DNA of 64,000 nucleotides from a virus, in the IMG/VR virus record IMGVR_UViG_3300032308_001420, positions 1 through 64,000 of that record; one strand, 5' to 3'. Position numbers and translations under genes: made by a program. Under the pieces are notes generated by a model, which was not told the origin of the DNA, did not search any database, and saw nothing but the letters and a program-made list of their open reading frames with translations. Shown here piece after piece: positions 1,112 to 55,836 of the stretch (positions are counted from its first letter, which is position 1; every line of letters starts with the position of its first letter).

Positions 1112-1450
1112 CTAGTTGTTTGGTATATCTGGATCATCCATTTGGATAAGCCCAAATTGTTTTGAAACTTTTTTTCCTTCTTCAGTTAATTCAAATGTGG
1201 GATTCAAGTTTTCGTCATATGTCACATTGATAAGGCCTCTATCATATAGCTCTATTAAAGAATTATCTACATGTTCTTGATGAGCTTCCCATAATTCTGG
1301 AGCCAATTCTTTTGCCTTTTCTGTAATTCCAAATATGAACTCTCCATCATCTTCAATTCCCGCCACCTCAATGGCTCCAATTTGTAGATAATAGTCTAGA
1401 ATGTCTCCATCTTCTGAATTCATATTCATATTATAGCGTACCATCTTCAT
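1112..1450 (-). CDS. Hypothetical acidic protein, possibly winged-helix-like
   Basis: The protein has 112 residues from the first ATG, or 105 from the ATG at 1429 just after the upstream stop; several in-frame ATG codons leave the start uncertain. The body is helical and acidic (DYYLQIGAIEVAGIEDDGEF, then ELYDRGLINVTYDENLNPTF ending in LTEEGKKV). The alternation of helices with a two-strand GLINVTYD...PTFELTEEGK hairpin resembles a winged-helix wing, but this is weak. The gene overlaps the end of the preceding gene by 20 bases, so translation is coupled. I do not recognise the family. Confidence 0.65.
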   Translation of the reverse strand: MKMVRYNMNMNSEDGDILDYYLQIGAIEVAGIEDDGEFIFGITEKAKELAPELWEAHQEHVDNSLIELYDRGLINVTYDENLNPTFELTEEGKKVSKQFGLIQMDDPDIPNN

Positions 1451-3484: not shown

Positions 3485-4004
3485 TCACAACAGATTCAAC
3501 AATTCCTGTGATTTGAGATAATCTCTTAGCTACCTCCATCTTACACTTAGGGCAGGTAGAAGTAACCTCTTTTAATATCTTAACCAGAATGTCTTGCTTT
3601 CTTTCTGTGTCAGCAATTTGTGTTGCAAGCTCGGCGTTGTCTAATAAACCAACCTGCTGCAACATACCAATTCTTTTTGTTTCAATGTCTGAAATTAATT
3701 TTAAAGCAGTGGCCTTAACATTTAGCTGGCCAGATTGATCTGCGTCTTCAACCGTCTTCCAGGCCTCTTTGATAAGCATTGCATAGTGTTGGTCTGCACC
3801 AGAGATTGCCTCCTTAGCACGTTCTCTGGAAGATGTATCATTATGAATTACAGACTTCCATTCATCTATTAGCTCTACAACTTCGCCTCTTTTAAATCCA
3901 GTTATCGTAGCAATTTGTGTTGGAGTGCTACCTTTGAGAAGTTCCTCAACAACTTTATTCATACGATCATAATGATCTGCTAATTCAATTTCGATTGTAA
4001 TCAT
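3462..4004 (-). CDS. Putative terminase small subunit
   Basis: The 180-residue protein has an N-terminal helix-turn-helix (KGSTPTQIATITGFKRGEVV, about residues 24-43). A long helical middle follows, with a pair of cysteines (CPKCK) near residue 152. This layout (DNA-binding HTH, helical oligomerisation core, C-terminal segment) and the overlap with terL fit a small terminase, which recognises the packaging site and feeds DNA to the motor. The Zn-type CxxC pair is not typical of all families. It overlaps the cupin gene upstream by 20 bases. No ATPase motif is present. Confidence 0.7.
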   Translation of the reverse strand: MITIEIELADHYDRMNKVVEELLKGSTPTQIATITGFKRGEVVELIDEWKSVIHNDTSSRERAKEAISGADQHYAMLIKEAWKTVEDADQSGQLNVKATALKLISDIETKRIGMLQQVGLLDNAELATQIADTERKQDILVKILKEVTSTCPKCKMEVAKRLSQITGIVESVVIEDADVV

Positions 4005-4323
4005 CCTCTATTCTTTGAATATCATCTTCGCCAAAATAGGTACCTGTTTGAACTTCTATAAATTCTACAGGGCTATGTTGAGATTCTATTCTATGAAGAT
4101 CTCCAGCTTTTATATCGACCGAATGTCCTGGTGACATAATTCTACTTACTCCGTTTATTGTTACATAAGGATTACCAGAAACTATAAACCAATGCTCATG
4201 TCTTTTTTCGTGTTTTTGATAGGATAGTCTTTGTCCAGATTCAACATAGATATACTTTGTCTTATGGTTATTAGATTCATTAAGAATTTTATAATAACCC
4301 CATGGTCTATTCTCTGTAGTCAT
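3985..4323 (-). CDS. Cupin related to the C-terminal domain of mannose-1-P guanylyltransferase/phosphomannose isomerase
   Basis: The 112-residue single-domain cupin begins with RPWGYYKIL and shows the two cupin motifs: GQRLSYQKHEKRHEHWFIVS, with the metal-ligand histidines, and PVEFIEVQTGTYFGEDDI followed by the RIEDDYNR tail. The FGEDDI-x-R-x-x-D-D-Y ending is characteristic of the ManC/PMI type II C-terminal domain, which interconverts mannose and fructose phosphates. Here it is free of the nucleotidyltransferase half, which is encoded separately at 4683-5345. The gene opens the terminase operon with a leaderless-type promoter six bases before its ATG. It may supply sugar for glycan decoration; that is inference. 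Confidence 0.85.
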   Translation of the reverse strand: MTTENRPWGYYKILNESNNHKTKYIYVESGQRLSYQKHEKRHEHWFIVSGNPYVTINGVSRIMSPGHSVDIKAGDLHRIESQHSPVEFIEVQTGTYFGEDDIQRIEDDYNRN

Positions 4324-4329
4324 TATGTA

Positions 4330-4348
4330 ATTATACTTCTAGTCGACT
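4330..4348 (-). promoter_or_regulatory. Leaderless promoter with AGTCGACT palindrome before the cupin/terminase operon
   Basis: On the minus strand the order is AGTCGACT (4341-4348), five bases, TATAAT (4330-4335), six bases, then the ATG at 4323. A TTGCTA hexamer stands 17 bases before the -10 box. No Shine-Dalgarno sequence is present between the -10 box and the ATG, and transcription would begin at or next to the A of ATG. The palindrome sits where a repressor or activator could act, and it recurs at the 23.96 kb promoter. Confidence 0.55.
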
Positions 4349-4683
4349 GAAATAGCAAGTTTCTTAGCAATTTTAAGTAAGATTAAATAACCAATCATAT
4401 CGTCAATATCATTGTCTCCTGCAAAACCAGAGCCATTTTTGATTCTATTTATCTTATCATCAATACGAATTTTAATCTGCTCTTGATTATCCGCCTGAGA
4501 AAATATTCGAATAGGAGATAAAGCCGAATCTCCATACGAAATGTTTTTCTTAATTAGCATCTCTGCAATATCAAGGCACTCTCTAATAATTTTATGTCCT
4601 GAAGGTGCACTTGTTGCAATTAGTTGTAGATCTGTTACCCATGCTTGATAGCTATCTTTGTTTGGATAATCTGTTCCCACCAT
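4339..4683 (-). CDS. DUF1599/Nmad1-like protein (nucleotide modification associated)
   Basis: The 114-residue helical protein carries KKNISYGDSALSPIRIFSQA around residues 44-63. It then has IRIDDKINRI and finally DDMIGYLILLKIA. The YGDSAL-x-P-x-R-I-F and R-I-D-D-K motifs are those of the DUF1599 family, named Nmad1 because it travels with phage genes for modified DNA bases. Its biochemical activity is not firmly known. It sits between a sugar nucleotidyltransferase and the terminase operon and overlaps the nucleotidyltransferase stop by one base. That context fits DNA or nucleotide modification, but no base-hydroxylating or thymidylate-synthase-like gene is in the window. Confidence 0.75.
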   Translation of the reverse strand: MVGTDYPNKDSYQAWVTDLQLIATSAPSGHKIIRECLDIAEMLIKKNISYGDSALSPIRIFSQADNQEQIKIRIDDKINRIKNGSGFAGDNDIDDMIGYLILLKIAKKLAISVD

Positions 4684-5345
4684 TATTCCATCTCCTTATA
4701 TAGTTGTTTAAGACCCTTTAGCGTTCCTATATCCATATATTTTCCACCTGGTCTTACCGCCCTAACATCTAAATTCATATCAAGCCACTCTTGTATTTGT
4801 TTTCCTGGATGCTCTAATTCTATATCTATGTATCTTATCAAATTTTTGCGGAATAGCATAGTGCCCCACATGTGTGGATATTCACAAGAAGAATTCTTAT
4901 CCATGGAAGAAAGTACTTTATCTCCAGATAATAATACCTGGCCCACCCTTCCTTTTAGATCATCGCCGCAATCCCATGTTCCAAGAACAAGATCACCTGG
5001 GGAAGCCATCATTTCTTTGTATATATTCTTTTGTGTTCCATGAATGTATGTGTCTGGCATTCCAATTAGAACTGTATCGTTATAATCCCCAACCATAAAC
5101 TTTACTGCATCTGACATGGTGGATGGCTCACGAACAATTAATTTAATATTCATATCCATGTTCTGAATAATTGGAACCCACTCAGCTCTTGTTGAAACCC
5201 TTACCTCATCACAAACTTCTAGCATTTGCTCAACGTGCCATTGAAGTAGACATCTTTCGTCAGAAATTGGTAGACAAAATTTAGGTATGCCACCTACTCT
5301 TGATGCTTTTCCTGAAGCTGGCAATATTCCTATCGTTGACATCAC
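4683..5345 (-). CDS. Sugar-phosphate nucleotidyltransferase
   Basis: The 220-residue protein starts with the NTP-transferase signature GILPASGKASRVGGIPKFCL (G-x-G-x-x-S-R-x-G...P-K, residues 6-25). It has a metal-binding Asp in LIGMPDTYI and the product-side segment GGKYMDIGTLKGL near the C-terminus. The family makes NDP-sugars from NTP and sugar-1-phosphate. It is shorter than RmlA or ManC because it lacks the C-terminal beta-helix or cupin part; the cupin at 3985-4323 may be its separated partner. It overlaps the glycosyltransferase gene by four bases, so the two are co-translated. The sugar specificity cannot be read from the sequence. Confidence 0.85.
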   Translation of the reverse strand: MMSTIGILPASGKASRVGGIPKFCLPISDERCLLQWHVEQMLEVCDEVRVSTRAEWVPIIQNMDMNIKLIVREPSTMSDAVKFMVGDYNDTVLIGMPDTYIHGTQKNIYKEMMASPGDLVLGTWDCGDDLKGRVGQVLLSGDKVLSSMDKNSSCEYPHMWGTMLFRKNLIRYIDIELEHPGKQIQEWLDMNLDVRAVRPGGKYMDIGTLKGLKQLYKEME

Positions 5346-6100
5346 TTATCCCAATCATGAGGATTAAATCCTTTAGGATAGGATTCATTTACTCTAGGAT
5401 CTTTTTTCCAAGCAATCCATCCTTCTTCTCTATCGTCTCCCCAATATAGATGAACTACATCTCTATCTAAAAGCCTTTTGGCATCTTCTCCGTGAAAAAT
5501 ATAAACTTTATTATCTTTTAAGAATGGCATTTCAATAAGCTCTGGAGCCCATTCATTAATGTGTTTTTGATATGGCTCTACTCCAAGTTCACGGTATAGG
5601 GCATCTGTAAACATTTGAACGTCAGTATAATAATGAACCATATGATTATGCTGAACAATTCCTTCAGAACATCTTTCAACGCAAAGGTCTATCGCTGCTT
5701 TTAACAGTGGGTGCCCAGATTTAGCAGCAATTGTTTGAGTTGCTAGCCAAGGTGTGTCTCTTTCTATATCTAAAATCATATCGTAATCAGAATTTAACCA
5801 AGTGTCTACTGGTATTTTGCAGTGTGTATCCATGTCTGCATATATTCCGCCATGAATATAAAGAATGGCAAATCTCCACAAGCCAGCCTTCATTACTCCC
5901 AGAGGCAAGTTTACATAAGTCTCGTATGTCTTTAAGTCAAAGTGTTCTTTGAAAAAATCTTCTCTGTCCTGTCCGCTCATGTAGCCATGAACCCATTCTG
6001 GATTTTGATAAGTCCATGTTCCTACGCTTTCTTTAGCGTAATGTGGCAATTCATCAAAAGTTGTTTCATAGGTCTGCCAAATCTTTTTTTCTATACTCAC
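5342..6100 (-). CDS. GT32-type glycosyltransferase
   Basis: The 252-residue protein opens with IEKKIWQTYETTFDELPHYA, like the IPKIIHQ-type start of glycosyltransferase family 32. It has the sugar-nucleotide/metal site RFAILYIHGGIYADMDTHCK (DxD near residues 90-92). Later segments (HMVHYY, IFHGEDAKRLL) fit the C-terminal acceptor region. It should transfer a sugar from an NDP-sugar to an unknown acceptor: DNA, a virion protein or a host glycan. The start is GTG at 6100, preceded by AAAGGAGAT. It begins immediately after the small HTH gene and is coupled to the nucleotidyltransferase, which could make its donor. Confidence 0.88.
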   Translation of the reverse strand: MSIEKKIWQTYETTFDELPHYAKESVGTWTYQNPEWVHGYMSGQDREDFFKEHFDLKTYETYVNLPLGVMKAGLWRFAILYIHGGIYADMDTHCKIPVDTWLNSDYDMILDIERDTPWLATQTIAAKSGHPLLKAAIDLCVERCSEGIVQHNHMVHYYTDVQMFTDALYRELGVEPYQKHINEWAPELIEMPFLKDNKVYIFHGEDAKRLLDRDVVHLYWGDDREEGWIAWKKDPRVNESYPKGFNPHDWDK

Positions 6101-7864: not shown

Positions 7865-8021
7865 TAGTAAACCTAAACACTAATGCTGCACCCAACCAAA
7901 TCCCAACAATTCCCATTACGGCTGGAAAATATGGTGGTGCTGGTACTGGCAGCTTAAAAGCTGCAAATATACCGCCAAGTACTGCGCCAGTAAATGTTGA
8001 AAGCAATATGTCTTTTATCAT
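7857..8021 (-). CDS. XapX-family (DUF1427) small membrane protein
   Basis: A 54-residue gene fills the gap between two replication genes. The peptide starts MIKDILLSTFTGAVLGGIFA and continues with FKLPVPAPPYFPAVMGIVGI, giving two hydrophobic helices around a P-V-P-A-P-P turn. That is the exact layout of the XapX family: glycine-rich helix, K-x-P-x-P-A-P-P, G-x-x-G-I-x-x-G helix. The function of XapX proteins is not known. Its ATG overlaps the upstream stop (TAATG), and its stop lies inside the start of the Cas4-like gene, so it is part of the operon and not a chance frame. Confidence 0.82.
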   Translation of the reverse strand: MIKDILLSTFTGAVLGGIFAAFKLPVPAPPYFPAVMGIVGIWLGAALVFRFTNG

Positions 8022-22386: not shown

Positions 22387-23541
22387 TTAGAAATCCAAAT
22401 CTAATCTATACTCTACGTCTACTGGTCTTCCAGCCAATTTTGATAATGGTAAGGCAAATACCGATCTACTAATTAATCCAAACTCTGGATCAAATGTATC
22501 TTCGTCGTTTATTCTTAATCCATCTGCGCCAATAGATGTTGTTGTCGATGAATTTGGAGTAACTATAATTCCTATTTGTGTAATATTTTTTTTATCTGGT
22601 GAATTTACTGAACCAGAAAAAATTGTACCTAGCGAAATGTCTGGGACAATCTTGTATCCTAACCCTGCTTGAGGAGTAATTGTAATCTCATAATATTTAG
22701 TTGATGTATTATAAAACCTTAGCTTTATGCTGGATAAATTTGAATCTTCTTTATAGTAAGCAAAGGATATGGAGTCATTTACGCTATACCCAGAAAAATC
22801 TAACGGGTTTATATCTGAGATATATTCTCTTGCTGCCGTTCCATTTGAAGACATTGTTAAGAGATTTCCACCAATTTTATAATTTGATGTTGACACAGTC
22901 GGATTACTTAAAGATGAATCTGCCCATAGCAGCGCATCTGAAAAATCAGATATATACTGACTATCAAAATTATTTACAGATGTTCTTGTTGATGGATAAA
23001 TTCCAACTTCTGAAATTTCTGCTACGACATCTTGAGGAATAGTTGTTTTATATATTACGGAATATGTTGAAATACCCCCAGATGTTTCTATATCTGTACT
23101 TCCAAACAATACTGGCAATCTATAAAATTCAAAACCTAGTCTTGTGTCATTTTCTGTTGCCTTTTTAAAAGACCGTCCAGAAGTTGATCCAGAAACAGCC
23201 GTTCCTGTTGCAGCATTGGTTACAGTAAATTGTGTTGTGCTTCTTGAAGCAACTGTAACATTTGTCAAGTTAAAAGCTGAAGTAGATAGCCCAGTAATGC
23301 TTACCACGTCTCCTACCGCAAAGTAGTTGTTTGCTGTGTATGTTACAGTTCCAGCTGATGCTGATGCTGCTGTAACCAAAGCTTCTTTTCTATCAATTCC
23401 AAAAGCCATATCCTTTTGTGTTGCAGTTATATTACCAGCAATAAAATTAGTTAAAAATCTTTTGCCAAACTTAGTAATAATATTGGATGAGCGGCAGATC
23501 TCCTTGCCATCTTGATAAAATACATATGTTCCTTTAATCAT
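22387..23541 (-). CDS. Tail protein with an inserted Ig-like/FCCH-type module
   Basis: The 384-residue protein opens with IKGTYVFYQDGKEICRSSNI and RFLTNFIAGNI, a start seen in tail proteins that carry a capping strand. Residues 58-112 hold a module with GDVVSITGLSTSAFNLTN and QFTVTNAATGTAVSGS, which recurs in the hub protein at 25697-27934. The last part (LSKLAGRPVDVEYRLDLDF) is beta-rich. It overlaps the next gene by four bases. It is likely a distal tail or baseplate component; the exact role is unknown. Confidence 0.72.
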   Translation of the reverse strand: MIKGTYVFYQDGKEICRSSNIITKFGKRFLTNFIAGNITATQKDMAFGIDRKEALVTAASASAGTVTYTANNYFAVGDVVSITGLSTSAFNLTNVTVASRSTTQFTVTNAATGTAVSGSTSGRSFKKATENDTRLGFEFYRLPVLFGSTDIETSGGISTYSVIYKTTIPQDVVAEISEVGIYPSTRTSVNNFDSQYISDFSDALLWADSSLSNPTVSTSNYKIGGNLLTMSSNGTAAREYISDINPLDFSGYSVNDSISFAYYKEDSNLSSIKLRFYNTSTKYYEITITPQAGLGYKIVPDISLGTIFSGSVNSPDKKNITQIGIIVTPNSSTTTSIGADGLRINDEDTFDPEFGLISRSVFALPLSKLAGRPVDVEYRLDLDF

Positions 23542-23954
23542 AGCTTTTCGGAAGGATTATAAATCCTTGCGTCTACCCCCTCAATATTTACTTTATCTTT
23601 ACTTGTATTTGTTACCTTAATAACAATCTTTGCCTTTTCTACTTTAGTCACTGGGTCATAATATTTTGTAGAACTAAATAGCTCTATGTCAGTTAAATTA
23701 GGAACGTCTGGCAAATCTCTTTCTTCTACGGCAACTACGGCGGATGGATTTTCTATTGCTTCTCGTGTTCCTACTGATATAGGTGATCCAAATGATGCAG
23801 TTAGGTATCTACCGTATTGCACTTCATTAGATTTGGAAGTAATAATTGCATACGGATTAAACCAAATGGTGTCTGGGTGACCTTCTGGTAAAACAATTTT
23901 AGGGTTAGAAACAATTGCTTGTTCTGGAACTCTATTTGGATTTTCTGAAACCAT
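23538..23954 (-). CDS. Hypothetical virion protein with leaderless start
   Basis: The 138-residue protein is proline- and valine-rich with beta-strand content (AIVSNPKIVLPEGHPDTIWF; KIVIKVTNTSKDKVNIEGVD). The C-terminal part looks like an Ig-like sandwich of the kind found in virion accessory proteins. The ATG lies six bases after a TGGTATAAT box and has no Shine-Dalgarno site, so it starts its own leaderless message in the middle of the tail operon. The following gene overlaps by four bases. Confidence 0.68.
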   Translation of the reverse strand: MVSENPNRVPEQAIVSNPKIVLPEGHPDTIWFNPYAIITSKSNEVQYGRYLTASFGSPISVGTREAIENPSAVVAVEERDLPDVPNLTDIELFSSTKYYDPVTKVEKAKIVIKVTNTSKDKVNIEGVDARIYNPSEKL

Positions 23955-23960
23955 TTTTTT

Positions 23961-23980
23961 ATTATACCATTTAGTCGACT
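23961..23980 (-). promoter_or_regulatory. Leaderless promoter with AGTCGACT palindrome inside the tail operon
   Basis: The minus strand has AGTCGACT (23973-23980), six bases, TATAAT (23961-23966, extended as TGGTATAAT), then AAAAAA and the ATG at 23954. The spacing from -10 box to ATG is six, so transcription should begin at the start codon. The palindrome is the same as at 4341-4348. A promoter here would boost the distal tail genes. Confidence 0.6.
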
Positions 23981-27935: not shown

Positions 27936-28406
27936 TTATACCTCTTCCATTGAAATAGATATATTCCAGTGTGCTTGAATTCCTCGTTTAACTAAATTAA
28001 ATGTGCAATCTGTAAATGATACAGTATGAGACTCATATCCAGAAGATGCTTGACCTACACCATTTTTTGCATAGTTAATTCTAATTTCAAATACACCTTT
28101 TCCTAGTGTGCTTGCATAAAATGTTCTTAGGTCTTCCGCTCCCCAGTATCCGTCTGCTGTTTCAGTTCTATAGGATGGAACTAAATCCCATGAAATACTG
28201 AAAGATTTTTTATCAGCAATAAAAAACTTTCTTAGTGTTCCGTTAGACATTCTCTGTGTTTGTTGAATTCTATTATGTCCTACTGTAAATGGGCCACGAT
28301 TATGGTCTGTAACGGTATTCCATTTTGTTGTTCCATCTCCGCCATTTGCAGAAGCATCTACGCCGTAGATTTGAAGGAGGGCTCCCCTAGGTAAAGTAAT
28401 AGCCAT
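27936..28406 (-). CDS. Distal tail-type protein
   Basis: The 156-residue protein begins MAITLPRGALLQIYGVDASA, contains the beta-rich FFIADKKSFSISWDLVPSYR and ends with FNLVKRGIQAHWNISISMEE. Proteins of this start and length occur between the tape measure and hub genes of actinophages. They probably form the ring that joins the tail tube to the tip. Its start overlaps the tape measure stop by one base. No catalytic motif is present. Confidence 0.7.
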   Translation of the reverse strand: MAITLPRGALLQIYGVDASANGGDGTTKWNTVTDHNRGPFTVGHNRIQQTQRMSNGTLRKFFIADKKSFSISWDLVPSYRTETADGYWGAEDLRTFYASTLGKGVFEIRINYAKNGVGQASSGYESHTVSFTDCTFNLVKRGIQAHWNISISMEEV

Positions 28407-31400
28407 TAGTTTCTTCTTCCCACTCCAGTCATTGCTGCTCTCATTACATTCTTTTGATCAAGCATGTCTACAACCATTGTTGCAATCATTTTTTCATCTT
28501 GTCCTGGTTGTGCATTCACAACAAATCCACCAACATCATAGTGGTGAACTGCTCCACCTTTATTATATCCTGGAATTTGATTTTTGCCAAGGGATACTGT
28601 ATTTGTAGGAATATTGTATCTTGGTCCTACTGCTCCACCCATTGCATAAGCTGGAACACTCATATTAGAATAACTAGATGGATTTACATACCCACCTCTT
28701 GCAAAACCAAGACCCAGCTCTTCCAATATAGTTCCCTTTGGCTTATTAAGTGCAATCCACTTTGCCGTGTCTATTGAAATATCGCCAGTTTGACCAGCAT
28801 TAATTCTTGGCATAATTGATCCAGTCATGCCAGATTTATTCATAAGAGGTCCTAGATTTTCTCCAGCTCCCATAAATCCTTCTTTGCTAAGCAAGCTCCA
28901 TAAACCATAATTTTGTCTCTTTAAATCTTTTGAAAAATCCAAATACTTACCGAAAGGTATTTTTGTTATCTTATTAACAGAGCCATATGACTCTCCCCAT
29001 TGCCCAGGAACATTATATCCGCCAGCATATAAATCAGCTTCTGCCTTTGAGCTTGTTCCATAGAATCCCATTCCATAATAAGGATCACGAGCATAATCTC
29101 CAGATAAATCTGTGACTCCACTAAATGGTCCATCAGAGTTTTGTCCTAGGTCGGCAGACCCATGGAACATTCCCTTCTTAACCATTTTCTTAGCTTTAAA
29201 ATAATTCATATATTGATTAAATAAATTAATTGGCTTATATGCCAGATCTTTGCTCTTTGATAAAATTCCAGCAAGCTTACCTATTAGGCCCCCGCCTGCA
29301 TATTTACGAACTGGTCCGCCCATCGCATAATCTGATGTGTCTCCATAGTTAGTTTTTTTATACCAATCTGCGTCTGCAGAAATTTTAGGAATATCTTCAT
29401 CCCATCCTACTATTTTTTTAGAAGACAATCTACTCTCAATTGCTGTTTTAACATTTTCTATATATTGCTTATACAGCTTTATTGGCATTGAATCTGCTGA
29501 GTAACCAGATGCGCTTAACATTTCTATTAAATCGCTATCTTTTATACCAGACAATGTTGACTGTGCTCTCTGAAGACCCTCTAAATATGCATCTCTTTCA
29601 GATTCTGGTAAGTATGAAAGCCCTTGATAGTATCTATTTTTTAGCCTATCAATAGATTTTTGTTGATCTCCAAATATATCTAATGAATGCTTGGAGTCTC
29701 CAATTCTGCCAAAATCAATAGCGCCAGCTTTTTTACCTATTGGATTTATAATTAAATTTCCGCCATGTGCATCTGAGTATCCAAGTGCATCTAATATTGC
29801 ATTTCTATAAGATCTTTCAGAAGTCATTCCAAGAGCAGCAAATGTTCTTGTGGGCAATGCGCTGACATTTTCTAGTGGCTTAAATGCACTCCAAAACATT
29901 GGATCTTTTGATAGCTTTTCAACTATAATCTTTTCTGTAATAGAACCCTTAGATATCTCATCTACTGATTTGCTAAATATTCCAAGGTTGTGTGGGAAGG
30001 AATAAGGTGTTTTGTAGGGCTTTATTACTGGAGCAACCAGGCCAGCCTTGCCTGCAAAAATAGAGCCAAATATTTCTCGTCTTACTTCATCTGGAGTTAT
30101 TTCGTTTAAAGACTTAAGATATCCAGTATCGCCAGACTTTATATGCTCTACAAGCTGTGTAATATTTAATGATGCTGGAACATTGGATTCTAGTGTTTTA
30201 AATTCTGTATAGTCAAGTAATTCTGGAAACTTTATTACATCATTTATATCTTTTGTTGTTTTACCCATTTTAATTTTAATGGGAGATGAAGCAGCTGCAG
30301 ATGCTGCTTTGCTTATTCCACCTATTTTACTTCCTAAACCCGCTCCCATAAAATTGAGTGGCAGCATTGCTGCAGATAGTGAATCGCCTTTTCTGCCTTG
30401 TCCAGCAATTTTTCTTAGTAGTGCTGCTGTTCCAAATGTTTCTGCACCTGGCATTCCGCTAAGGCTAGATACATATCTTTGGAACCAATTTTGTTTTTTA
30501 GCTGGGCTAGAAGAACCAAATGATGACATTCCCATTGCATGTGGAGCAGAACTTACCATGCCACCATCTGCAAAACCAAATGGCCAAACATTTTTTACTA
30601 GTTTTAATGTTTTTGGTGCGTCACCAAACATCTGTCCATATACTTTTGCTGGTAAAGAGTAAATTTCAGGTAATGATTCTAATAAATCTTTGCCACTTAA
30701 TAACTGTGGAAACTCCATGCTTCCCTGTGCCTTGCTATTTCTTACAGCACCTTCACCTAAGAAATTTGTAAGCTGGGATATTTTTTTATCAATTCCAAAC
30801 ATTGGCAATTCTTCGCCAAGTTTTGCTGATCCTATCATTGCGCTATATAAAGCGGCTATATGTGGATTAGTAGAAAAATAAGTTGAAAGATCTCTTTCTC
30901 CAGTTCTCCAAGCGCTACCTGCGGTGTTTCTTACACCCTTAAATAATTTAATAACGTCATCTGGAAGCAAGTCATAAAATTCTTTTGCATAGTATTCATT
31001 AAATTTTCCTACATCAGAAAAATCAATTTTTGGATATTTAGCCTTTAGTAATGCTTCTCTTTGCGCCTGGACAAGTTCCCAAGCACCAGCACCTGCTTTG
31101 CTTAGACTTCCTTCCTGTATCCATCCTTTGAGCGCTTCCTTTGCTGAGCTTGGGCTAAAGGTAATTCCAGTTTCTGGAATTTTGATTGAAGATGGATCTA
31201 ACTTTGATAAATCTTGTACAGCCTTGGCATCAATGTCTGCCATACCGAAGGATTTCATTTCAGGGGTAAGTTTTGATATAGCTCCTGGTACCTTTGCTGC
31301 GCCCCGTCCAACTCCTCCAAGTGGCAGTAGTGCTGCAGATAAGTAGTCTAATTTATTTCCAGTTCCAGAAAATACATTTGCAACTTCTTTTCCGCCTAAG

Positions 31401-34400
31401 AAATCATAACCAAGACTATGCTTACCAAATTTAAATGGGTCCATAGTTTTTAAAAATTTATGCATAAACTTTGATAATAATGATTGTTTGCTAGCCAATC
31501 CGCCATTTGCAAGTCTGCTTGGTCCGTAGTCAGACAGAGGATTTATAACTCTTCCTCCGCCTGCAAACATCAGTGGACCTAGTCCGTAGGCACCGCTTCC
31601 AATGCCTCCCATAGAGGCTCCAGAGCCTGCCATACGCATAGGATCTCTATCTATACCCATTCCTGGGCTTGTAAATGGTTTACGTGGCTGCTCAGCCATC
31701 TGATGCATGTAGTCTGAATGCTGTGGAACATTTCCACTAAACTTAAGTCCTGGAATTTCTGTTCCGCCCCATATGTCCATACCTGGACTACGTGGCCCAA
31801 TAAACCTAGAAAGTTCTCCCCAGTATTGTCCAAAAGGATTTCCTATAGGCTTTCCAGATCTTGAATAAGGAACACCTGGCTTCTTTTGTCTTGGTACAGT
31901 TAGAGGTCCCTTTATCCAATTTCCAGAATCATCAAAAGAACTTGTAACCTTTCCACCTTGTGCAAATTTCTTTATATTAACCTTTGTGCCTGCAAAAATT
32001 CTTGATCCGCCCATATATTTTGGATCATTTAATTGTGGATTCATTTCCATTAATTGCTTGACGCTAATGCCATACTTTGCAGCAATTGCAGATAATGTAT
32101 CTCCTCTGCCTACTGTGTATCTATCATTTTCATAATCTGACTTAGCATCATCTGCGCTGTAATATTCTGGTGTGCCATATCCATATTTAATAGTATCTAC
32201 TGGCTTATATGAAGGTCTTCCGAATCCTACAATTGGAGCATTCTTCATATTGTATTGTCTTACTTTTGCAAGTACTCCGCCGCCGCTTCTTTGACTTCCA
32301 GAGCCAGATGTATTTCCTTCTATAGTTGAAACTGCATTCTTACTTAAAACTTTTCTTACTAGTCCTACGTGAGAAATTCTATTGACGCCATCTCCTGGGA
32401 AATCCATAAAGGCTAGATCTCCACGAACTGGACTCATTGTTGTCCACTTCCCACTCTTCATAAATGATTGAGCTCCACCAGGAGTCCATATCATACTTGA
32501 TAAATCTACTCCAGATTTCTTTGCCGCCCAATTTATAAATGCACCACACCATGCAATATATCTAGTTTGTAGATCATATGCCTTCTGTGCAAATCTTCCA
32601 AATATTGTGTCGTTGCCTCTTCCTTCTTTATAGCCCAACATAGACTCTGCTGTTTTAATCATTGAGTCTGCTGTGCCCATCTTAGTTACCTTGCCGCCAT
32701 TAGCAAATCTGCCAGCGTTTAGGTTATCAAGGAAATCTGGGCCAAGGTCTCTACTTGCCTTCTCAACTGAAGAAGCTTTAATTACATATTCACCATCTGA
32801 AAGATATGCTGGGATAGAATCAGATGTTGAAGTTCCTGGACCCATTACGTCTCCGCCTGGAGCGTAGTGTTTTACAGCCCCACCTTGTGCAAAAGTAAAG
32901 TTACTTCCTGGGTTGTCGTATCCTGGGTTATACCATCTTCCAACAAGTTTATTATTTTTTAAAACATCGCCATTCTTTTTATATAAATATCCACCCTGAT
33001 TTACATCTTTAATTGGCCCCAACATTTCTAAACTTTGTCCGCCTCCATATGTTGGATGCACAAATGATTGATTTGATCCAGCAGGTCCACCTACTGGAAC
33101 TGGCATAACACGAGCTTGCTCTCTTGTGTACTTAACTCCAGTTGAACGATTTTGAAATCCTCCAGTAGCGGGATCAAAAGATAATTTAGTTCCTGATGTT
33201 GGCGTAGGAGTTCCAGATAATATTTTCTTTAATAATCCCAAAACTTCTGTATCTGATGTTTTAAGTTCTCCCTTTTCGTTGTAAATTGCTTTACCAAATG
33301 CTGACTTAGCTATTTCCTCTATGCCACTTGGATTTGGAACAAATCTGCTTCCTACATAGCTACCGCCGCCACCAGATAAAGATCTTGCTATGTCTTTATA
33401 TCCAGCTTTTTCTAAATCAGATATAAGCAGATTAAGTCTATCTTTCTCTGTTGGACTTAATTCACCATCTGTTGCAGAAGTTGTTAGTGCAAGAAGCTCT
33501 GTGAGTAAGGAGCTAAGATTTTCAACTTTTGCGTTTGCTGCATCAGCTGTCTTTTTTGCTGAATCTACTTTATTCTGAAGTCCATCAATTCTTGCATTAA
33601 GTGCATCAATTAATGATTGTTCTTTTGAAATATCCTCTTCTGCCTTTAAATCAATAGCTCTCTTTGCTAAAGCAACTTGTTGAGACCCAACTAATTGTTG
33701 AATTGCAATTTGTGCTTGTGCTGCACCAGACATATCTCCAGCAGCTAATTTATCTTGATACTCAAGCTGCTTTGCCTTAATTCTAAGATTAATGTCTTCA
33801 TCTGCATTTTCTTCATCTAAAGCTTTCTTTCTTGCGTCCGCTTCTTCTTTTATTTTTTGAATCTTTTTATTATGTAATTCAATTTCTTTACGAAGAGCCT
33901 TAGCTGAAAGTTCTGCGTTTTGAATAATTTGTTCTGCATTTGTTTTTGAAACCTTTGCCATATCCTTTACAATTTGTGAATATGGACCAGATTTTAATGC
34001 TTCTCTTTGTTTTTCAATTATTATAGAAAGAGCTTCAGCGGCTGCTGGCCCCATATTTACAAAATCTAAAGCTATTCCAGATGTAGAAAGTCTAACTTTT
34101 GCCATAATGCTTGCCAAAGTATCTGTTGTGTTTAGAAGCCTGTTCATCTCCGCATTTTGCTTTACTATAGCATTGACACCCTCAATTCCAATTGCTACAT
34201 TTCCACTAGATGTTGCCTTTATCTGCTTTAATATTTCCTGATAAGATTCTGAAGAAGTTATGAGTTTGCCATTTTTATCTTTTGTATTCTCAATTGAATC
34301 TGCTAAATTATTATAAGCATTTAATGCGGTATCCAAGGACTTGCTTAGCTGGTCTGTATTTCCATTTTTAATTACATTATTAAATGTTTCCAGGGTAGAC

Positions 34401-37400
34401 TTTGCAGCAGAAGCTTTATCTGTAATAGTTCCAAAACCTTTATCTCCTAATACTGACAAAGCCTGGGCTGATTTATTTGAAATTGAAATTAATGCATATA
34501 TTAATTCATTTGCATTTTCTACAGACATCCCGCTTGATACAAACATGGCTTTTAGTTGAGTTGCTTTCTGTGCCAGCTCTTGCTCAGATGCTACATTTAG
34601 CATTTTAAGTTCTGTTGGTAACTGTTCCTTAGCTTGCTTTTTTAGTTCATCAAATTCTTTTACAGTTATATCTATTCCTTGACCAGGAGCTTTTGTTGTA
34701 GTATATTTAAATGCTGCCGCCGCTGCATTTCTTAATTCAATTTCCTTTTTGTTTTTTTCTATAGATGAAGTTAAAGTTTTATAGTTAAGATTTAGCTTTT
34801 TTACAGTTTCTTCTTCTAGGCCAAAGGCGGAGTCAATTATTCTTCGTCTCTCATTAATTTTGTCATTAATGGTTTTTATTGCAACTCCTACACCAAGCAA
34901 GACAGCTATTAATTTGACTGGCCCAGGCATTTTTGTAAAAAGTTGAAATGCTTTTGTTAATAAAGTTGTTTGAGTTCTTGCTGTTCCTGCAGCCCTAGAC
35001 ATAAGGAACATGTCTGTTGCCATTTGACCAACCATGTATCCGCCCATTTGCCCAATACCGCCAAACATTCTGCCGCCAACTTGACTTAATCCAAATCCAG
35101 CAGCCTGTCCTAGAAGCATTGACTTCATGTATCCAGATGCTCCAATTCTTGGCTGAACAATTCTTTGTTCGTTTTCTTCCGCAAAGTATTGAACCCCAGG
35201 AACTACCCCGCCCTTTGAGAATCCAGGAATAATTCCACCAGACATTTTTGGAACAAATATTTCTGGACCATTCTCTCCAACTAAATACGGTCTACCACCA
35301 GTAACTGGTCCTCCGCCTGCACGAGCACCGTCAACAACTGTCTCTAATTGTATTTTGCCATTTCCTGCATCAACAATTCTAAACTTACCGCCAAAGATTG
35401 CCTCTTGTTCTGACCTTGAATTATGTCCAGCTACCTTTTGTCCAAATGGTGCTGAGAATTTTGCATCTGGGAAAATCTCTGATGATGGAACAACATTTCT
35501 ATTTCTTACAATTGCTTCTAATAGAATAGCTTTTTGGTCTCCTGGAGCAGAATGGCCAGGAGCAAATAAACTTGCTATGTCCCTATTTTGACTCCACGAT
35601 GAGCGGCGCATTATAAATTCTCTTCCAATTAAAGGAGTATAGTCTCCAGTTAATTTTGCCTGAGATATTAAATCTAATATATCTGCTGGCAGCGGATTTG
35701 ATTTATTATTCTTTAAAAATATTCCTCTGTATAGTCTTCCAGTATATTTTCTTGATAAAGTTTTTACTGCTTCTGTAGCGCCTGGAGTTTGCAAAATGCC
35801 ATAGTTTCCAGCCATGTATTGACGCAATATATATTTGCCACGATCCTCTAAATTACCAATTGGGAACTGAGGAAGTACTGCTTGTCTTGCAAATCTATCG
35901 TCACGATATAAAATTTCACGAGTCCACTCAGGCTCATTTTGCATATTTTTTGGAACCATTGTTGTTCCAATTTGTAATGGCCCGTGAAGTGGATCTTGGT
36001 TTCCTAGTGTATATTGATATCCTGGTTGTCTAAACTGCTGTTGTGGTTTCCATTTTCCAGTTAATTTATCAAGCTTTGACTTAGATAAAGACTTTACTAT
36101 TCTTCCAACCATGTTGGTTCCAAAGTTTTGTATGATTCCGCCCATATTTTTTCTTTGTATTCTAGCTACTTTATTTTCTTTTAGGGCAACATAATCTCGT
36201 TCGTATAATGCGGTTGGATTGTATTGAGTTAAAACTCTTTCTATTTCTGGAATTACATCTTTTGTAAAAGTAAACTCTGCGCCAAGCTCTGGTCTATCTC
36301 CTATAGTTGGAAGTTGATCTACTGAGACACCACGTCTTTGTGCTTCGTTTTCAAATCTTGTTCTTATTGCTGAATCTATTGCTTCTTCAGCTTCATCCCA
36401 TTGAGAAAGAGGAATTTTTGCAGCTCTTAATTGATTTCTATATTTGTTTACTCCTGCTACCTTAACAAGGTCTCTTCTTAAAAAGTCGGATGGTCTAAGG
36501 TTATTTTGGTTTGCTGATAAATTAGTTGCCGCTGTATAATCTACAATATAGTTGCTTACTAATACTTTTCCATCTCCTAGTTTTTTACTTACTGTAAGAT
36601 GCGTACCATGTCTTGGCTCTGCATATGGAAGTGCATCTAGTCCATTTTCTACAAACCTTGAATTTAATTCGCTAACATTTTTTGACTGTAATGTTCTTGA
36701 TGTTTGAGAATGAAGTGCTGGATCTTTTTTAGACCTAGTTAATTTATCTGTAAAGTTTTTAGCTACATCTAAATATTTTTGTTTTAATACAGGATCTGGA
36801 ATATCACCAATTTGAGAAATAAATCCTCTAGCATCTGCCCCTCTTGCTTTTATGCCATGAACAGTTTCTACTACATCTCTATTTCTAGTTGTAGAAAGAC
36901 CTTTAACAATTCTATTAGGCATCATTCTGCCAAAGAATTGCATACCCTCTATCATTCCGCCTTTATTTTTATTTTGAATTGGAACTATTACCGCTTTACC
37001 CTTATTGTATAGATGAAGTCCTTCTGGGTCACGAGCTGTTTGTTCTTTAGTTACAACAAATTCTCCTGGAGTAAGCATTGCTGGAACGGTATCTGTATTT
37101 CCTTGACCAGGTACAAATCTACCTTGTTCGGTAGTAAATACCTGTCCGCCCATGTTTAATCTTTTTGGTCTAGTTGTTTCTGTTGAATATGGTGCGCCAA
37201 ATGTTTTAACTCTAAGCGCTTCAGCAATTCTTGTAATAAGGTTTCTGTTTCTTGGTCTTGTAAGTTCTTTCATATTTGATTTTCCAGTTACTGGGTCAAA
37301 TGCTGGTTGATCTACAATTGGCAACTGTGTTAAATTAATTGTTCTTCCTTGTGCAGTAGCAACTCCTGTTGCTGCCTGCCCCATCATTGCTTCAATCTGT

Positions 37401-41363: not shown

Positions 41364-41447
41364 TTATTTCTTACCTCCTGTTTTTTTCAAAAAATCTAAT
41401 AAATCTGTCAAGCTGGCTAGGCTTCTTTCCTCTTGGTATAATAATAA

Positions 41448-48723: not shown

Positions 48724-49065
48724 TTATTTAGGAAGAATTAACTTCTTCATTTCGTCTTTATGGTTTCCAACATCTAAAGGATCTGGAATTAGTCCCCACT
48801 CAAGTCTTTTTTGCTGGTACTCAAATTCTTCATCATCAATTTTTCTGCGTCCTGAAAGGAATTTTGGTTGTCCCTCATAGATACCATAAGACCCAACTTC
48901 ATTTACAAGGGCTTCAATCTTTGACTTATTGCCTTTCATGGATGTGACTGACAAGAAATTGCCTTCGTCGTCTCCGACCCATCTGCCATCTGGCATTTCC
49001 CAAACATAAATACCAAGTCTGGTTTCTTCATCCATGACCTGTGTGTTAATCTTATTGATATCCAT
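48724..49065 (-). CDS. Conserved phage protein before the portal
   Basis: The 113-residue protein contains TRLGIYVWEMPDGRWVGDDE and GNFLSVTSMKGNKSKIEALV. It ends with GLIPDPLDVGNHKDEMKKLI. The beta start and the N-x-x-S-V-x-S-x-x-G pattern occur in proteins placed next to the portal of actinophages, but no function is known. The ATG has a TGGTAAAAT box eight bases upstream and no ribosome site, so it may be a leaderless start of the head operon. Confidence 0.65.
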   Translation of the reverse strand: MDINKINTQVMDEETRLGIYVWEMPDGRWVGDDEGNFLSVTSMKGNKSKIEALVNEVGSYGIYEGQPKFLSGRRKIDDEEFEYQQKRLEWGLIPDPLDVGNHKDEMKKLILPK

Positions 49066-49073
49066 AGAGTTTT

Positions 49074-49082
49074 ATTTTACCA
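49074..49082 (-). promoter_or_regulatory. Possible leaderless promoter of the head operon
   Basis: The minus strand reads TGGTAAAAT, eight bases, ATG at 49065. The -10 hexamer is one base off consensus and the spacing two longer than in the other leaderless cases. No Shine-Dalgarno site lies between. It would start transcription of the portal, protease and capsid genes after the fibre region. Confidence 0.42.
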
Positions 49083-52249: not shown

Positions 52250-53374
52250 CTATGCAAACTTCGTTTGTGATCCAAATACCGTGTAAGTAGCTGATGATGT
52301 TTTTAAAATTGTGTAAACGTAAGTGTCTACACTAGAAGCATTTCCTGCACTTGGTGCAGCTCCATTTAACCATTTAATACTGCTTTGTGTTGTTCCGTCA
52401 ATTTGAAAAGTAGACGGATACGAAGCGGTTGATGCTCCAGTTGTATTTAAAAATGCTATTGTCATAGACTGTCCATTAGACATCAAAGAATTCAAAGTAA
52501 CTCCAGAACTACCTCTAACATTTAAAGTAAATGCACTTGTTGACCCAGTTGTATAATACCAAACACTAGAAGTTGCTACATCCATATTAATTGTTGAAGA
52601 TGTTGCTGATGCAACAATATTTGCTGTTTCAAGTAATCCAGTAACTGCAGAATTTGTTTGTATTACTCCCTGAGTACCAGTAGTTCCTTGAGCTCCCGTT
52701 GCGCCTTGTGAGCCAGTTGTACCCTGTGAGCCTGTTGCACCTTGTGAACCAGTAGTACCTTGTGAACCAGTTGTACCAGTAGTACCTTGTGAACCAGTAG
52801 TACCAGTAGTACCTTGTGAACCAGTAGTACCAGTAGCACCTTGTGAACCAGTTATTCCTTGGGCGCCAGTTGTTCCCTGTGTTCCAGTTGCGCCTTGTGC
52901 ACCTTGAATAGGGCCAACATTTGTCCAAGCAGATCCAGTCCATACATACAAATCGCCAGAAATTATATAAGCATCTCCAACTGTTCCTGTTGGATGTGCC
53001 GACTGTAGAGCTCCTAGTGTTGCGTATGTTCCTAAAATATCAACGCCAGTTCCAGCAACTCCTTGTGCGCCAGTTGTTCCTTGAGTTCCTGTTGCGCCTT
53101 GTGTTCCAGTAGCTCCTTGTGTGCCAGTAGTGCCTTGTGTGCCCTGTGCGCCTTGTGTACCAGATGTGCCTTGTGTACCATTGGCTCCTTGTGTTCCTGT
53201 TGCACCCTGTGCTCCAGTGGTTCCCTGTGCTCCTTGGGAACCAGTAGTTCCTTGCGCTCCAGGATTTGCAGTTAAATAAGTATCAATGTTTTGTGCAAGT
53301 AGTTGGATATCCGCAGGAATATCTGGCGGATCTGAATAAGCAGGAAAACTAAAACCCTTTGATGTTGAGCCCAT
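52250..53374 (-). CDS. Collagen-like tail fibre protein
   Basis: I use the ATG at 53374 (374 residues, [11 protein letters not shown]); an upstream TTG would place the promoter inside the gene. Two collagen tracts of G-x-x triplets, mostly GAQ, GTT and GTQ, lie around residues 33-105 and 155-240. A small beta domain separates them ([33 protein letters not shown]). The C-terminal head ([20 protein letters not shown]) probably starts trimerisation or binds the receptor. The collagen part forms a stiff triple helix. The gene has a leaderless-type promoter. Confidence 0.88.
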
Positions 53375-53380
53375 TTTAAA

Positions 53381-53389
53381 ATTATACCA
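53381..53389 (-). promoter_or_regulatory. Leaderless promoter for the collagen-like fibre gene
   Basis: The minus strand reads TGGTATAAT, then TTTAAA and the ATG at 53374. The six-base spacing leaves no room for a ribosome site, as at 4323 and 23954. The box lies in the last codons of the upstream TPR gene. Confidence 0.6.
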
Positions 53390-53954
53390 CAATTCCCATA
53401 AAATCTAAGTTTCTTTTAACGGATGAAGAATACATATTAGGCATGGGTATCTTATAAAGCTTAATAAATAATTCTTGGCTTTCATCTTGTCGTCCTACCC
53501 ACCAGGCAGCTACGGCTTTTTGAAATGTTAAGCAAAAATCTCCTGGGTAATCAACACCTATTGGAAGAGGTGCATGATTTTCTGATAATCTATAAAGACC
53601 AACTTCTGCATAAGTATATGCTTGCTGCCAATTTTTATTTCTTTCGCTATAACGAGAAAGCAAGAACCATGCTTCAGGTCTTCCTGGTTGATATGCAGCA
53701 GCCTTTAAAAAAAGATTTTCTACTGTAGCCTGTCTATTTTTTTGATTTTCAAAACAATTTGCTGACTTTAATAATGATGCATACACATACTCTGGGTGTG
53801 AATAGTAACCATATTCTGCCGCCCTTAAATAAAATGAAATAGCGGCAGCAGTTTGTCCTACAAGTTCATACTCTGTAGCAATGCTAAAACAAAGTTTTGG
53901 GTCAAAAGGATCTTTGCTTAGTTTTTCAACTAATTCATTTATTACCTCAAACAT
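53382..53954 (-). CDS. TPR-repeat protein
   Basis: The 190-residue protein is helical with tetratricopeptide-like units: [61 protein letters not shown] shorter fourth unit follows ([20 protein letters not shown]). Such TPR segments accompany glycosyltransferases and glycan-binding enzymes in bacteria and aquatic phages. It overlaps the GH130-like gene by eight bases, so the two proteins probably work together. The tail-fibre region is an odd place for it. Its last codons carry the promoter of the next fibre gene. Confidence 0.72.
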
Positions 53955-54945
53955 TTATGGCCTCTGCAATCATATTATCTATTACGTCTCCTGGCACCCT
54001 TAGAGCAAAAGCTGCGTTATCTACGTAGCCGAATGTTACTAGAAGGTCGTTATCTAATTGTGCAGCGCCAGCACAAAATTCTATTTGCCCATCTAAAAAT
54101 GACCAACATTCTGGAGACATTCCCTGAAGAATAAAATTGTCATCCCATACACATAATCTATGTCTGTAGGTAGCATTTTTCTGCTTCATATAATTTTTAT
54201 ATAGGACAACTTCATGCGTAATAGCGATGTACTTATCTTTCCATTTAATAACTTGGGATCCACCACGCTGATCAGAATTAATAGCATTGCCTTCTTCGTG
54301 AGACACTTGCTCACATTTGGCTTCTTTAGGATCAGCTTTAACTACCTCTGTAGGAGATGTCCATTTAATATATTGAAATTCTCTATCTAAAATCGGCATC
54401 CAGTTTTTTTCACAATACGAGTTTTCATCTATTGGTGCTGGAATTCTAATACGTGATATTTCTTCTGCCGTCCAATTATCTTTATCAATCTTTAATTCTG
54501 ATAATTCCATGCGACCAACTCCGTTGGTTGTTGTATCTCTGCGAACTCCTGTAGCATAATATTTGCTATCCCATTTAACAAGTCTGGCATCTTCTAATCC
54601 AACAAATGTCCATATCGGCTTAACATCTAATTTAGTTGTATCAATCAATGTCCAGTTAATTATATTTAAATCTTTATCAAGACGGCAGAGGTAGTTAGCA
54701 GTTACCAATCTTTGATCTTCTTCTGGATGTAAATATGCTAATGGTCCCCATACACTAGGAAATCTTTGATCATTTTCAGAGTGATATAAAGTATAGTTTA
54801 TATGTCTTAATATACATAGGATATCTCCATCATCATCTATAAAGATAGAGGGGTTCATTAATCCTGTCCCGCCCGTTTCTTCGGCGGAAATAATAAGAGG
54901 AACTAATTTTCCCCCACTAGATATTGATCTTTGTACTAGATTCAT
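53947..54945 (-). CDS. GH130-like five-bladed beta-propeller protein
   Basis: The 332-residue protein shows propeller repeats of the mannoside-phosphorylase family (GH130 and relatives): NPSIFIDDDGDILCILRHIN, FVGLEDARLVKWDSKYYATG, KNWMPILDREFQYIKWTSPT, GGSQVIKWKDKYIAITHEVV and AGAAQLDNDLLVTFGYVDNA. The G-L-E-D-A-R motif is a family hallmark that holds a catalytic or sugar-contact residue. Members cleave or bind beta-mannosides; here it may depolymerise or recognise host glycan, or modify virion glycans. No ribosome site is evident; a TAGAAT box lies seven bases before the ATG. It is coupled to the TPR gene. Confidence 0.78.
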   Translation of the reverse strand: MNLVQRSISSGGKLVPLIISAEETGGTGLMNPSIFIDDDGDILCILRHINYTLYHSENDQRFPSVWGPLAYLHPEEDQRLVTANYLCRLDKDLNIINWTLIDTTKLDVKPIWTFVGLEDARLVKWDSKYYATGVRRDTTTNGVGRMELSELKIDKDNWTAEEISRIRIPAPIDENSYCEKNWMPILDREFQYIKWTSPTEVVKADPKEAKCEQVSHEEGNAINSDQRGGSQVIKWKDKYIAITHEVVLYKNYMKQKNATYRHRLCVWDDNFILQGMSPECWSFLDGQIEFCAGAAQLDNDLLVTFGYVDNAAFALRVPGDVIDNMIAEAINV

Positions 54946-54999
54946 ATAAGCAATTCTACTATATTAAACAGCTATTGTAAATGTTTAAGATTTATAAGC

Positions 55000-55785
55000 T
55001 TAACGGTATTCTTTTGGTTGTCTAAACTGGTTTTTATATGAATCAAAAAACCTAGTTTTAAGCTTATTGGTTGTCTTAGCCTGGTCGATTAAATTTTCTT
55101 CTTTGCCAATATCCATTTGCCATTCTTCTCTTTTAAATGGAATAACTTGAGCAATTGGGGTTCCCGCTGGAATCAATCCTTGCCATTTAGTATCATTTAA
55201 AACAAAAGGGAAGTTTACTGGGGAAGTATAAGTATCCGTATCAACTACTCCAGGCATAATTGTAAATACTGATTCTCTGTGCCAAGGCTGCACAAAAGCA
55301 ACAGAATATCCTGGTGGTGTTTGAATAGCCCATGGGTTTATCCATTTAGGATAAGAACCTTGATGTCCATTTCTGCTTGGATGATTTAAAGCTTGTTCTA
55401 CAGGATGAAATTGAAGAATTCCAAAATTAGCCCATTCATAATGAGGTACAGTTTTTGGAAATTTATATTCCTTTGCTTTTTCTTCTGAAAGAGGTATGGT
55501 TTCTCCAGTTTTATCAAAGTGCTCTGAGTCTGCATATTCAGCATTTATTTGTGAAATATAAACGTCTACTGGAGTTTTAATAATATATCCAGAGTTAATT
55601 GCGTCAAAGACTGGCATGCATCTTTTTATTGTTCCTGTAGTCATGCCTTTTCCATTAGGAACTTTTTCTCCACCCATATAAGACTCTATATCTTTATACC
55701 ATTGAGGAATGTTTTTTGATGCTGGCTCAGGTGGATATAATTCTTCTATACCAAAAATGTTAGTAAAAGTAATTATCTGTGACAT
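55000..55785 (-). CDS. Cyanophage-type conserved protein, function unknown
   Basis: The 261-residue protein contains IEELYPPEPASKNIPQWYKD, WINPWAIQTPPGYSVAFVQP followed by WHRES, and WQGLIPAGTPIAQVIPFKRE. These P-P-E-P-A-x-K-x-I-P-x-W-Y-K and P-x-G-x-P-x-A-Q-x-x-P-F motifs recur in proteins of marine and freshwater phages of unknown role; the second part may be a double-stranded beta-helix fold, similar to cupins. It has a leaderless-type start and stands alone between fibre genes, which suggests an accessory gene. I do not assign a function. Confidence 0.7.
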   Translation of the reverse strand: MSQIITFTNIFGIEELYPPEPASKNIPQWYKDIESYMGGEKVPNGKGMTTGTIKRCMPVFDAINSGYIIKTPVDVYISQINAEYADSEHFDKTGETIPLSEEKAKEYKFPKTVPHYEWANFGILQFHPVEQALNHPSRNGHQGSYPKWINPWAIQTPPGYSVAFVQPWHRESVFTIMPGVVDTDTYTSPVNFPFVLNDTKWQGLIPAGTPIAQVIPFKREEWQMDIGKEENLIDQAKTTNKLKTRFFDSYKNQFRQPKEYR

Positions 55786-55791
55786 GTAAAA

Positions 55792-55797
55792 AGTATA
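55792..55797 (-). promoter_or_regulatory. Leaderless promoter for the 55.0-55.8 kb gene
   Basis: The minus strand has TATACT, six bases (TTTTAC), then the ATG at 55785. An AAAAGG purine tract lies before the -10 box, too far from the start codon to act in translation. The spacing equals that of the other leaderless starts. The box is not TGn-extended. Confidence 0.5.
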
Positions 55798-55836
55798 CTA
55801 CCTTTTAAATTGAAAGTAAATAGTTTTTAATTTACT

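What the first reader, a model, noticed from the sequence alone, without database searches (positions are those of the whole stretch)
4324..4335. A set of leaderless genes with a fixed -10-to-ATG distance
Four starts share the same design: a -10 box, exactly six bases, then ATG, with no ribosome site. They are 4323 (TATAAT), 23954 (TGGTATAAT), 53374 (TGGTATAAT) and 55785 (TATACT). Two weaker cases are 49065 (TAAAAT, eight bases) and 54945 (TAGAAT, seven bases). Genes with Shine-Dalgarno sites are the rule elsewhere in the window. The fixed spacing implies transcription starting at the A of ATG and suggests a host adept at leaderless translation, such as an actinobacterium.
Basis: partly seen in the sequence, partly recalled or inferred. 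Interest (0 to 1): 0.72.

Follow-up and report, generated by a model that had tools for sequence, protein, structure and literature searches.

The report
Leaderless genes in a freshwater actinophage
At least six genes of this uncultured freshwater virus appear to be read from messages that begin at or within a base or two of the start codon, with no ribosome-binding leader; this way of starting genes is well known in actinobacteria, and related viruses keep the same spacing.

Summary
All six quoted sites exist. On the coding strand of the window, TATAAT-N6-ATG occurs 5 times (0.7 expected) and TGGTATAAT-N6-ATG twice (0 in 300 shuffles). In nine related freshwater phage contigs, -10 boxes pile up exactly 6 bases before gene starts: 24 of 441 starts against 2.6 expected (P about 1e-15). 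Of these 24, 22 lack a Shine-Dalgarno (SD) site and all start with ATG. T4 and SPO1 have none; two Streptomyces phages of the nearest known lineage have the peak. The boxes are conserved where flanking bases diverge, with promoter context of two sorts: a -35 box about 17 bp upstream, or an extended -10 (TGGTATAAT). Best explanation: host SigA-type promoters starting transcription at the A of ATG, giving leaderless mRNAs. An actinobacterial host is supported by terminase, portal and polymerase relatives and by WhiB in a close relative. Spacing is 6 as a mode, with some 7 and 8. Transcription starts were not measured. Leaderless genes are common in actinobacteria and predicted in mycobacteriophages, so this is a new, well-supported case of a known kind. 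New details: ortholog switching between SD and leaderless starts, and spacing re-made when the first gene behind a promoter differs.

The parts
4321..4335 (-). TATAAT (4330-4335), 6-nt spacer, ATG (4321-4323) of a cupin / mannose-6-phosphate-isomerase C-terminal-like gene (3985-4323); weak -35-like TTGCTA at 4353-4358, 17 bp upstream
   Evidence: TATAAT invariant in 17 relatives (88-99% protein identity) while the spacer varies; Pfam PF01050; -35 position
23952..23969 (-). TGGTATAAT (23961-23969), spacer AAAAAA, ATG (23952-23954) of a 138-aa gene (23538-23954) downstream of minor-tail genes; extended -10 class, no -35
   Evidence: TGGTATAAT-N6 conserved in relatives at 43-95% protein identity, N7 in G006
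53372..53389 (-). TGGTATAAT (53381-53389), spacer TTTAAA, ATG (53372-53374) of a collagen-like tail-fibre gene (52250-53374); the upstream gene's stop TAA lies inside TATAAT
   Evidence: conserved in relatives down to 42-46% protein identity with diverged upstream DNA; PHROGs tail fibre
55783..55820 (-). TTTACT (55815-55820), 17 bp, TATACT (55792-55797), 6-nt spacer, ATG (55783-55785) of a phrog_7084 gene (55000-55785)
   Evidence: orthologs divide between -10-N6-ATG and SD starts; promoter boxes
54943..54981 (-). TTTACA (54976-54981), 17 bp, TAGAAT (54953-54958), 7-nt spacer, ATG (54943-54945) of gene 53947-54945
   Evidence: 7-nt spacing and -35 conserved in relatives
49063..49082 (-). TGGTAAAAT (49074-49082), 8-nt spacer, ATG (49063-49065) of the gene before the portal (48724-49065, phrog_9394)
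   Evidence: 8-nt spacing kept in 5 distinct relatives; BillNye ortholog has GGTACAAT-N6-ATG, G014 N7
1421..1435 (-). possible further case: TATAAT (1430-1435), 6-nt spacer, ATG (1421-1423)
   Evidence: only one near-identical relative keeps it; others have SD; the box overlaps the upstream stop; weak

Best explanation
These are promoters read by the host's main (sigma-70/SigA-type) RNA polymerase, placed so that transcription begins at, or within a base or two of, the A of the start codon. The mRNAs are leaderless and are translated by the actinobacterial host's ribosomes without a Shine-Dalgarno site. There are two promoter sorts: a -35 element about 17 bp upstream of a plain -10, and an extended -10 (TGGTATAAT) without a -35, the latter before virion-type genes in the window. 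They restart transcription inside the long one-directional gene array. Shown by sequence: boxes, spacing peak, SD depletion, conservation, promoter context, lineage. Inferred: the exact transcription start, the sigma factor used, and leaderless translation itself.
For: Spacing-6 peak in 9 family contigs: 24 against 2.6 expected, P 1.3e-15, all ATG starts. SD depletion, Fisher p 8e-6. Same peak in StarPlatinum (5 against 0.25) and BillNye (5 against 0.14); none in SPO1 or T4. -35 enrichment at 16-18 bp (17/35 against 112/1823 strong matches; score test p 1.5e-7) and extended TG (12/35 against 93/1823, p 1.6e-7); the two features tend to exclude each other (p 0.005). -10 invariant while spacer or flanks vary. 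In G018, where the cupin gene is absent, the same promoter stands 6 nt before the next gene's ATG. No sigma-70 region-2 gene in any of the 20 records. WhiB in G018 and eight other relatives. A -10 at this distance is accepted as a leaderless signature in Actinobacteria (PMC3160421, PMC3898074).
Against: No 5' end was measured. Spacings of 7 and 8 leave leaders of 1-2 nt or an uncertain start. Gene starts were called by a simple rule, not experimentally. Upstream genes run the same way, so readthrough mRNA may also carry these genes, and how these starts are then initiated is unknown. The record is partial (75.7 kb), so absence of a phage sigma factor or polymerase is not secure.
Confidence: 0.88

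Rival explanations
1. Chance or coding coincidence: in an AT-rich genome with tight gene packing, TATAAT near ATG arises because stop codons (TAA) and Tyr-Asn codons lie just before starts.
For: It does account for one further candidate: at 8021 (TATAAT-N5-ATG) the box encodes the conserved C-terminal Tyr-Asn-Ser-stop of the upstream gene and changes synonymously (TACAAT, TATAAC) in relatives.
Against: The peak is at one spacing, falls off at neighbouring spacings and is absent in T4 and SPO1. Most of the six boxes are intergenic. -35 and TGn are enriched. TGGTATAAT is kept while upstream DNA diverges.
Confidence: 0.04
2. They are real promoters, but transcription starts upstream or the start codon lies elsewhere, so the mRNAs have short leaders or use a downstream ATG.
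For: Spacings 7-8 at 54945 and 49065; the same TGGTATAAT class also precedes SD-led genes at 19-21 nt in G017/G018; 53374 has an upstream in-frame TTG.
Against: -10 boxes fix the start about 6-8 nt downstream in sigma-70 promoters generally; starts at the quoted ATG are conserved at protein level; SD is depleted.
Confidence: 0.07
3. The boxes are promoters of a phage-encoded polymerase or sigma factor rather than the host's.
For: Records are incomplete. The single-subunit polymerase search had no ringing control, so it is uninformative.
Against: No sigma-70 region 2 in 20 records, with the search working on controls. The boxes match the ordinary sigma-70 -35/-10 and extended -10 consensus.
Confidence: 0.04

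Closest known systems
Leaderless (TA-led) genes of Actinobacteria (Zheng et al. 2011, PMC3160421; Cortes et al. 2013, PMC3898074)
   Same: TANNNT/TATAAT box about 12 bp (first T) before the start codon, no SD, a minority of genes; orthologs switch between SD-led and leaderless
   Different: Here in an AT-rich phage; box closer to TATAAT, with -35 enriched and extended TG frequent, whereas M. tuberculosis shows no -35 motif and 7% TGN
Predicted leaderless SigA-like promoters of Cluster O mycobacteriophages (PL1, PR2, PL2; PMC4351075)
   Same: +1 predicted at the first base of the start codon; SigA-like boxes; one serves a leftward gene in the structural operon
   Different: Different phage lineage and host; here shown across many genes and genomes by spacing statistics and conservation
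Streptomyces phages of the Stanwilliamsviridae (StarPlatinum, BillNye and others)
   Same: Nearest characterised relatives by terminase, portal and DnaE; same spacing-6 peak; the small gene after the large minor-tail gene also has TATAAT-N6(7)-ATG
   Different: The proteins in that slot are not detectably homologous to window 23954, so only the slot and design are shared; these phages infect cultured soil hosts

Membership tests
Leaderless gene (sigma-70-type, bacterial) | -10 box 6-8 nt before the start codon, more often than chance | tested here: met
   24 at spacing 6 against 2.6 expected in 441 starts; 0/300 shuffles in the window
Leaderless gene (sigma-70-type, bacterial) | no Shine-Dalgarno site | tested here: met
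   22 of 24 lack SD against 192 of 417 others, p 8e-6
Leaderless gene (sigma-70-type, bacterial) | ATG (or GTG) start at the 5' end | tested here: met
   24/24 ATG
Leaderless gene (sigma-70-type, bacterial) | mapped 5' end at the start codon | not testable with these tools
   no transcript data
Actinobacteriophage | core genes nearest to phages of actinobacteria | tested here: met
   DnaE 57%, terminase 63%, portal 58-60% to Streptomyces phages
Actinobacteriophage | WhiB gene, a marker of actinophages | tested here: inconclusive
   absent from the partial window record, present in G018 whose DnaE is 86% identical
Stanwilliamsviridae | family-level whole-genome relatedness | not tested
   three core genes at 57-63% identity only; no whole-genome clustering done

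The most novel reading that the evidence does not exclude
In this phage lineage a leaderless promoter is a stable fixture of a genome slot. Genes come and go directly behind it, and whichever gene is first re-acquires a spacing of about 6 nt (4323/4004 in the window against G018 and G011), and freshwater and Streptomyces phages keep such a promoter in the same tail-gene slot before proteins with no detectable homology.
Probability: 0.35. Interest if true: 0.6.

Novelty: new member of a known kind. Interest (0 to 1): 0.45.

Why it matters
It gives a sequence-only marker that a virus uses leaderless expression and probably infects an actinobacterium, useful for uncultured freshwater phages whose likely hosts can lack CRISPR. 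It also corrects gene starts (53374 rather than the longer TTG start at 53392), and shows that one viral gene family (phrog_7084) alternates between SD and leaderless starts, a natural comparison for how the two modes interchange.

Tried and rejected
8021 (TATAAT-N5-ATG) looked like a missed case, but its box is conserved coding sequence with a TAATG stop-start overlap: rejected. 1423 is kept only as weak. Homology between window 23954 and the Streptomyces protein in the same slot was not supported by BLASTP or by hhalign on shallow profiles. The looser TANNNT-N6-ATG count is not enriched in bulk. A host could not be read from genome bins: the two terminase hits lie on contigs binned as Cytophagaceae and cyanobacterium, which I take for mis-binned phage. 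The search for single-subunit RNA polymerase is uninformative because no control rang. The GTCGAC palindrome upstream of some boxes is not enriched genome-wide.

Full report
WHAT WAS CLAIMED AND WHAT IS THERE. The window is the first 64,000 bases of a 75,684-base virus record, 38% G+C, with nearly all genes on the minus strand. All six quoted sites exist: TATAAT-TACATA-ATG at 4323, TGGTATAAT-AAAAAA-ATG at 23954, TGGTATAAT-TTTAAA-ATG at 53374, TATACT-TTTTAC-ATG at 55785, TAGAAT plus 7 bases at 54945 and TAAAAT plus 8 bases at 49065.

CHANCE. On the coding strand, TATAAT-N6-ATG occurs 5 times against 0.72 in dinucleotide shuffles, with none of 300 reaching 5; TGGTATAAT-N6-ATG occurs twice and never in shuffles. 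The loose TANNNT-N6-ATG pattern over both strands is not enriched, so the signal lies in near-consensus boxes at gene starts. I therefore called genes by a rule that ignores promoters and counted TATAAT-like boxes (at least 5 of 6) at each distance from the start in 20 viral contigs. In the nine contigs nearest the window (the window's own record included), 441 distinct starts gave 24 boxes at spacing 6, 9 at 7, 4 at 5 and 4 at 8, with about 3.6 at other spacings and 2.6 expected from internal ATGs (P 1.3e-15). Some of the 24 are orthologs of one another that had diverged enough to count as distinct, so the P value is optimistic. All 24 start with ATG. Two have an SD-like motif against 225 of 417 other starts (Fisher p 8e-6). 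Eleven other, looser relatives show the same peak (21 against 2.6). Two annotated Streptomyces phages show it (5 against 0.25 and 5 against 0.14). Bacillus phage SPO1 and coliphage T4, treated identically, have none at 6.

PROMOTER ANATOMY. Boxes at spacing 6-7 in the family are preceded by a strong -35 match at 16-18 bp in 17 of 35 cases against 112 of 1823 internal look-alikes (p 1.5e-7 on scores), and by TGn in 12 of 35 against 93 of 1823 (p 1.6e-7). The two features tend to exclude each other (p 0.005). In the window, 55785 and 54945 have TTTACT/TTTACA exactly 17 bp from the -10, and 4323 has a weaker TTGCTA there; 23954, 53374 and 49065 have TGG before the box and no -35. The TGG sites in the window precede virion-type genes (tail region, tail fibre, the gene before the portal). 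The same TGGTATAAT also precedes SD-led genes at 19-21 nt in G017/G018, so the promoter type does not force leaderless design.

CONSERVATION. 4323: TATAAT is unchanged in 17 relatives while the spacer reads TACATA, TATATA, AATATA, TATCTA or AATGTA. 53374: TGGTATAAT-N6-ATG persists in relatives at 42-46% protein identity with diverged upstream DNA. 23954: kept in relatives at 43-95% identity, with one at spacing 7. 54945 keeps 7 nt in four relatives and 49065 keeps 8 nt in five, so these two are real but not 'six'. 55785: of 60 distinct relatives, 7 have a -10 at 5-8 nt and 32 an SD; some others with weaker boxes also look leaderless. The same gene has thus changed its start mode, probably more than once.

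A GENE BEHIND THE PROMOTER. In G018 and G011 there is no cupin gene at the 4323 position. The same promoter, next to the same upstream gene in G011, stands directly before the gene that is second in the window (4004): 6 nt from its ATG in G018 and 8 nt in G011. In the window the cupin gene is first at 6 nt, and the 4004 gene overlaps its end. The spacing is therefore re-made for whichever gene is first. An apparent second case at 8021 was rejected: there the box is the conserved Tyr-Asn-Ser-stop end of the upstream protein, varying synonymously.

LINEAGE AND HOST. DnaE (57%), terminase (63%) and portal (58-60%) are nearest to Streptomyces phages of the Stanwilliamsviridae. WhiB, cited as an actinophage marker (PMC10202952), is absent from the partial window record but present in G018, whose DnaE is 86% identical. 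No sigma-70 region-2 gene was found in any of the 20 records. A low-G+C freshwater actinobacterium is likely; the order Nanopelagicales is a guess from composition and presumed habitat, not a result. In the Streptomyces phages the small gene after the large minor-tail gene has TATAAT-N6-ATG, or N7 in Coruscant and BillNye, in all nine genomes checked. This is the slot of window 23954, although the proteins are not detectably related.

KNOWN OR NEW. A TANNNT box about 12 bp before the start is the accepted sign of leaderless genes, above 20% of genes in Actinobacteria (PMC3160421). In M. tuberculosis about a quarter of genes with a mapped start are leaderless (PMC3898074). Predicted leaderless promoters are on record for Cluster O mycobacteriophages (PMC4351075). 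I found no paper in the held library reporting this across phage genomes, but that library is partial. The finding is a well-supported new case of a known kind. The missing proof is a mapped 5' end.

Noticed in passing
4341-4348 and 23973-23980; G018 79171; G017 79415: The palindrome AGTCGACT lies 5-6 nt upstream of the -10 at most of the few independent AGTCGACT sites in the family; possibly an operator, possibly coincidence (GTCGAC is not enriched overall).
   Followed up: partly
L273 1-135 (Coruscant); L260 22630-22660 (StarPlatinum): In some Streptomyces relatives the leaderless -10 is the centre of a palindrome (GCCCCCAATTGTATAATTGGGGGC; GGGGCTATAATAGCCCC), and in BillNye before 35815 a hairpin abuts it; these could be operators.
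   Followed up: no
55000-55785: The phrog_7084 protein is widespread in viral contigs (253 confirmed relatives), but its only annotated relatives in the phage collection are haloarchaeal tailed viruses at about 30% identity.
   Followed up: no
28406-39865: One open frame of 3819 aa, in the position of the tape-measure gene and far longer than the roughly 2100-codon tape-measure frame of StarPlatinum.
   Followed up: no
3985-4323: The cupin gene (mannose-6-phosphate isomerase C-terminal type) has its nearest annotated phage relatives in cyanophages, and lies close to a glycosyltransferase-like gene (5342-6100).
   Followed up: no
41434-41442: A TGGTATAAT on the plus strand, facing against the structural genes, is conserved in G010.
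   Followed up: no
L258, L259: Phage terminase homologs (86% and 65% identity) lie on contigs binned as Cytophagaceae and cyanobacterium genomes, probably mis-binned phage.
   Followed up: no
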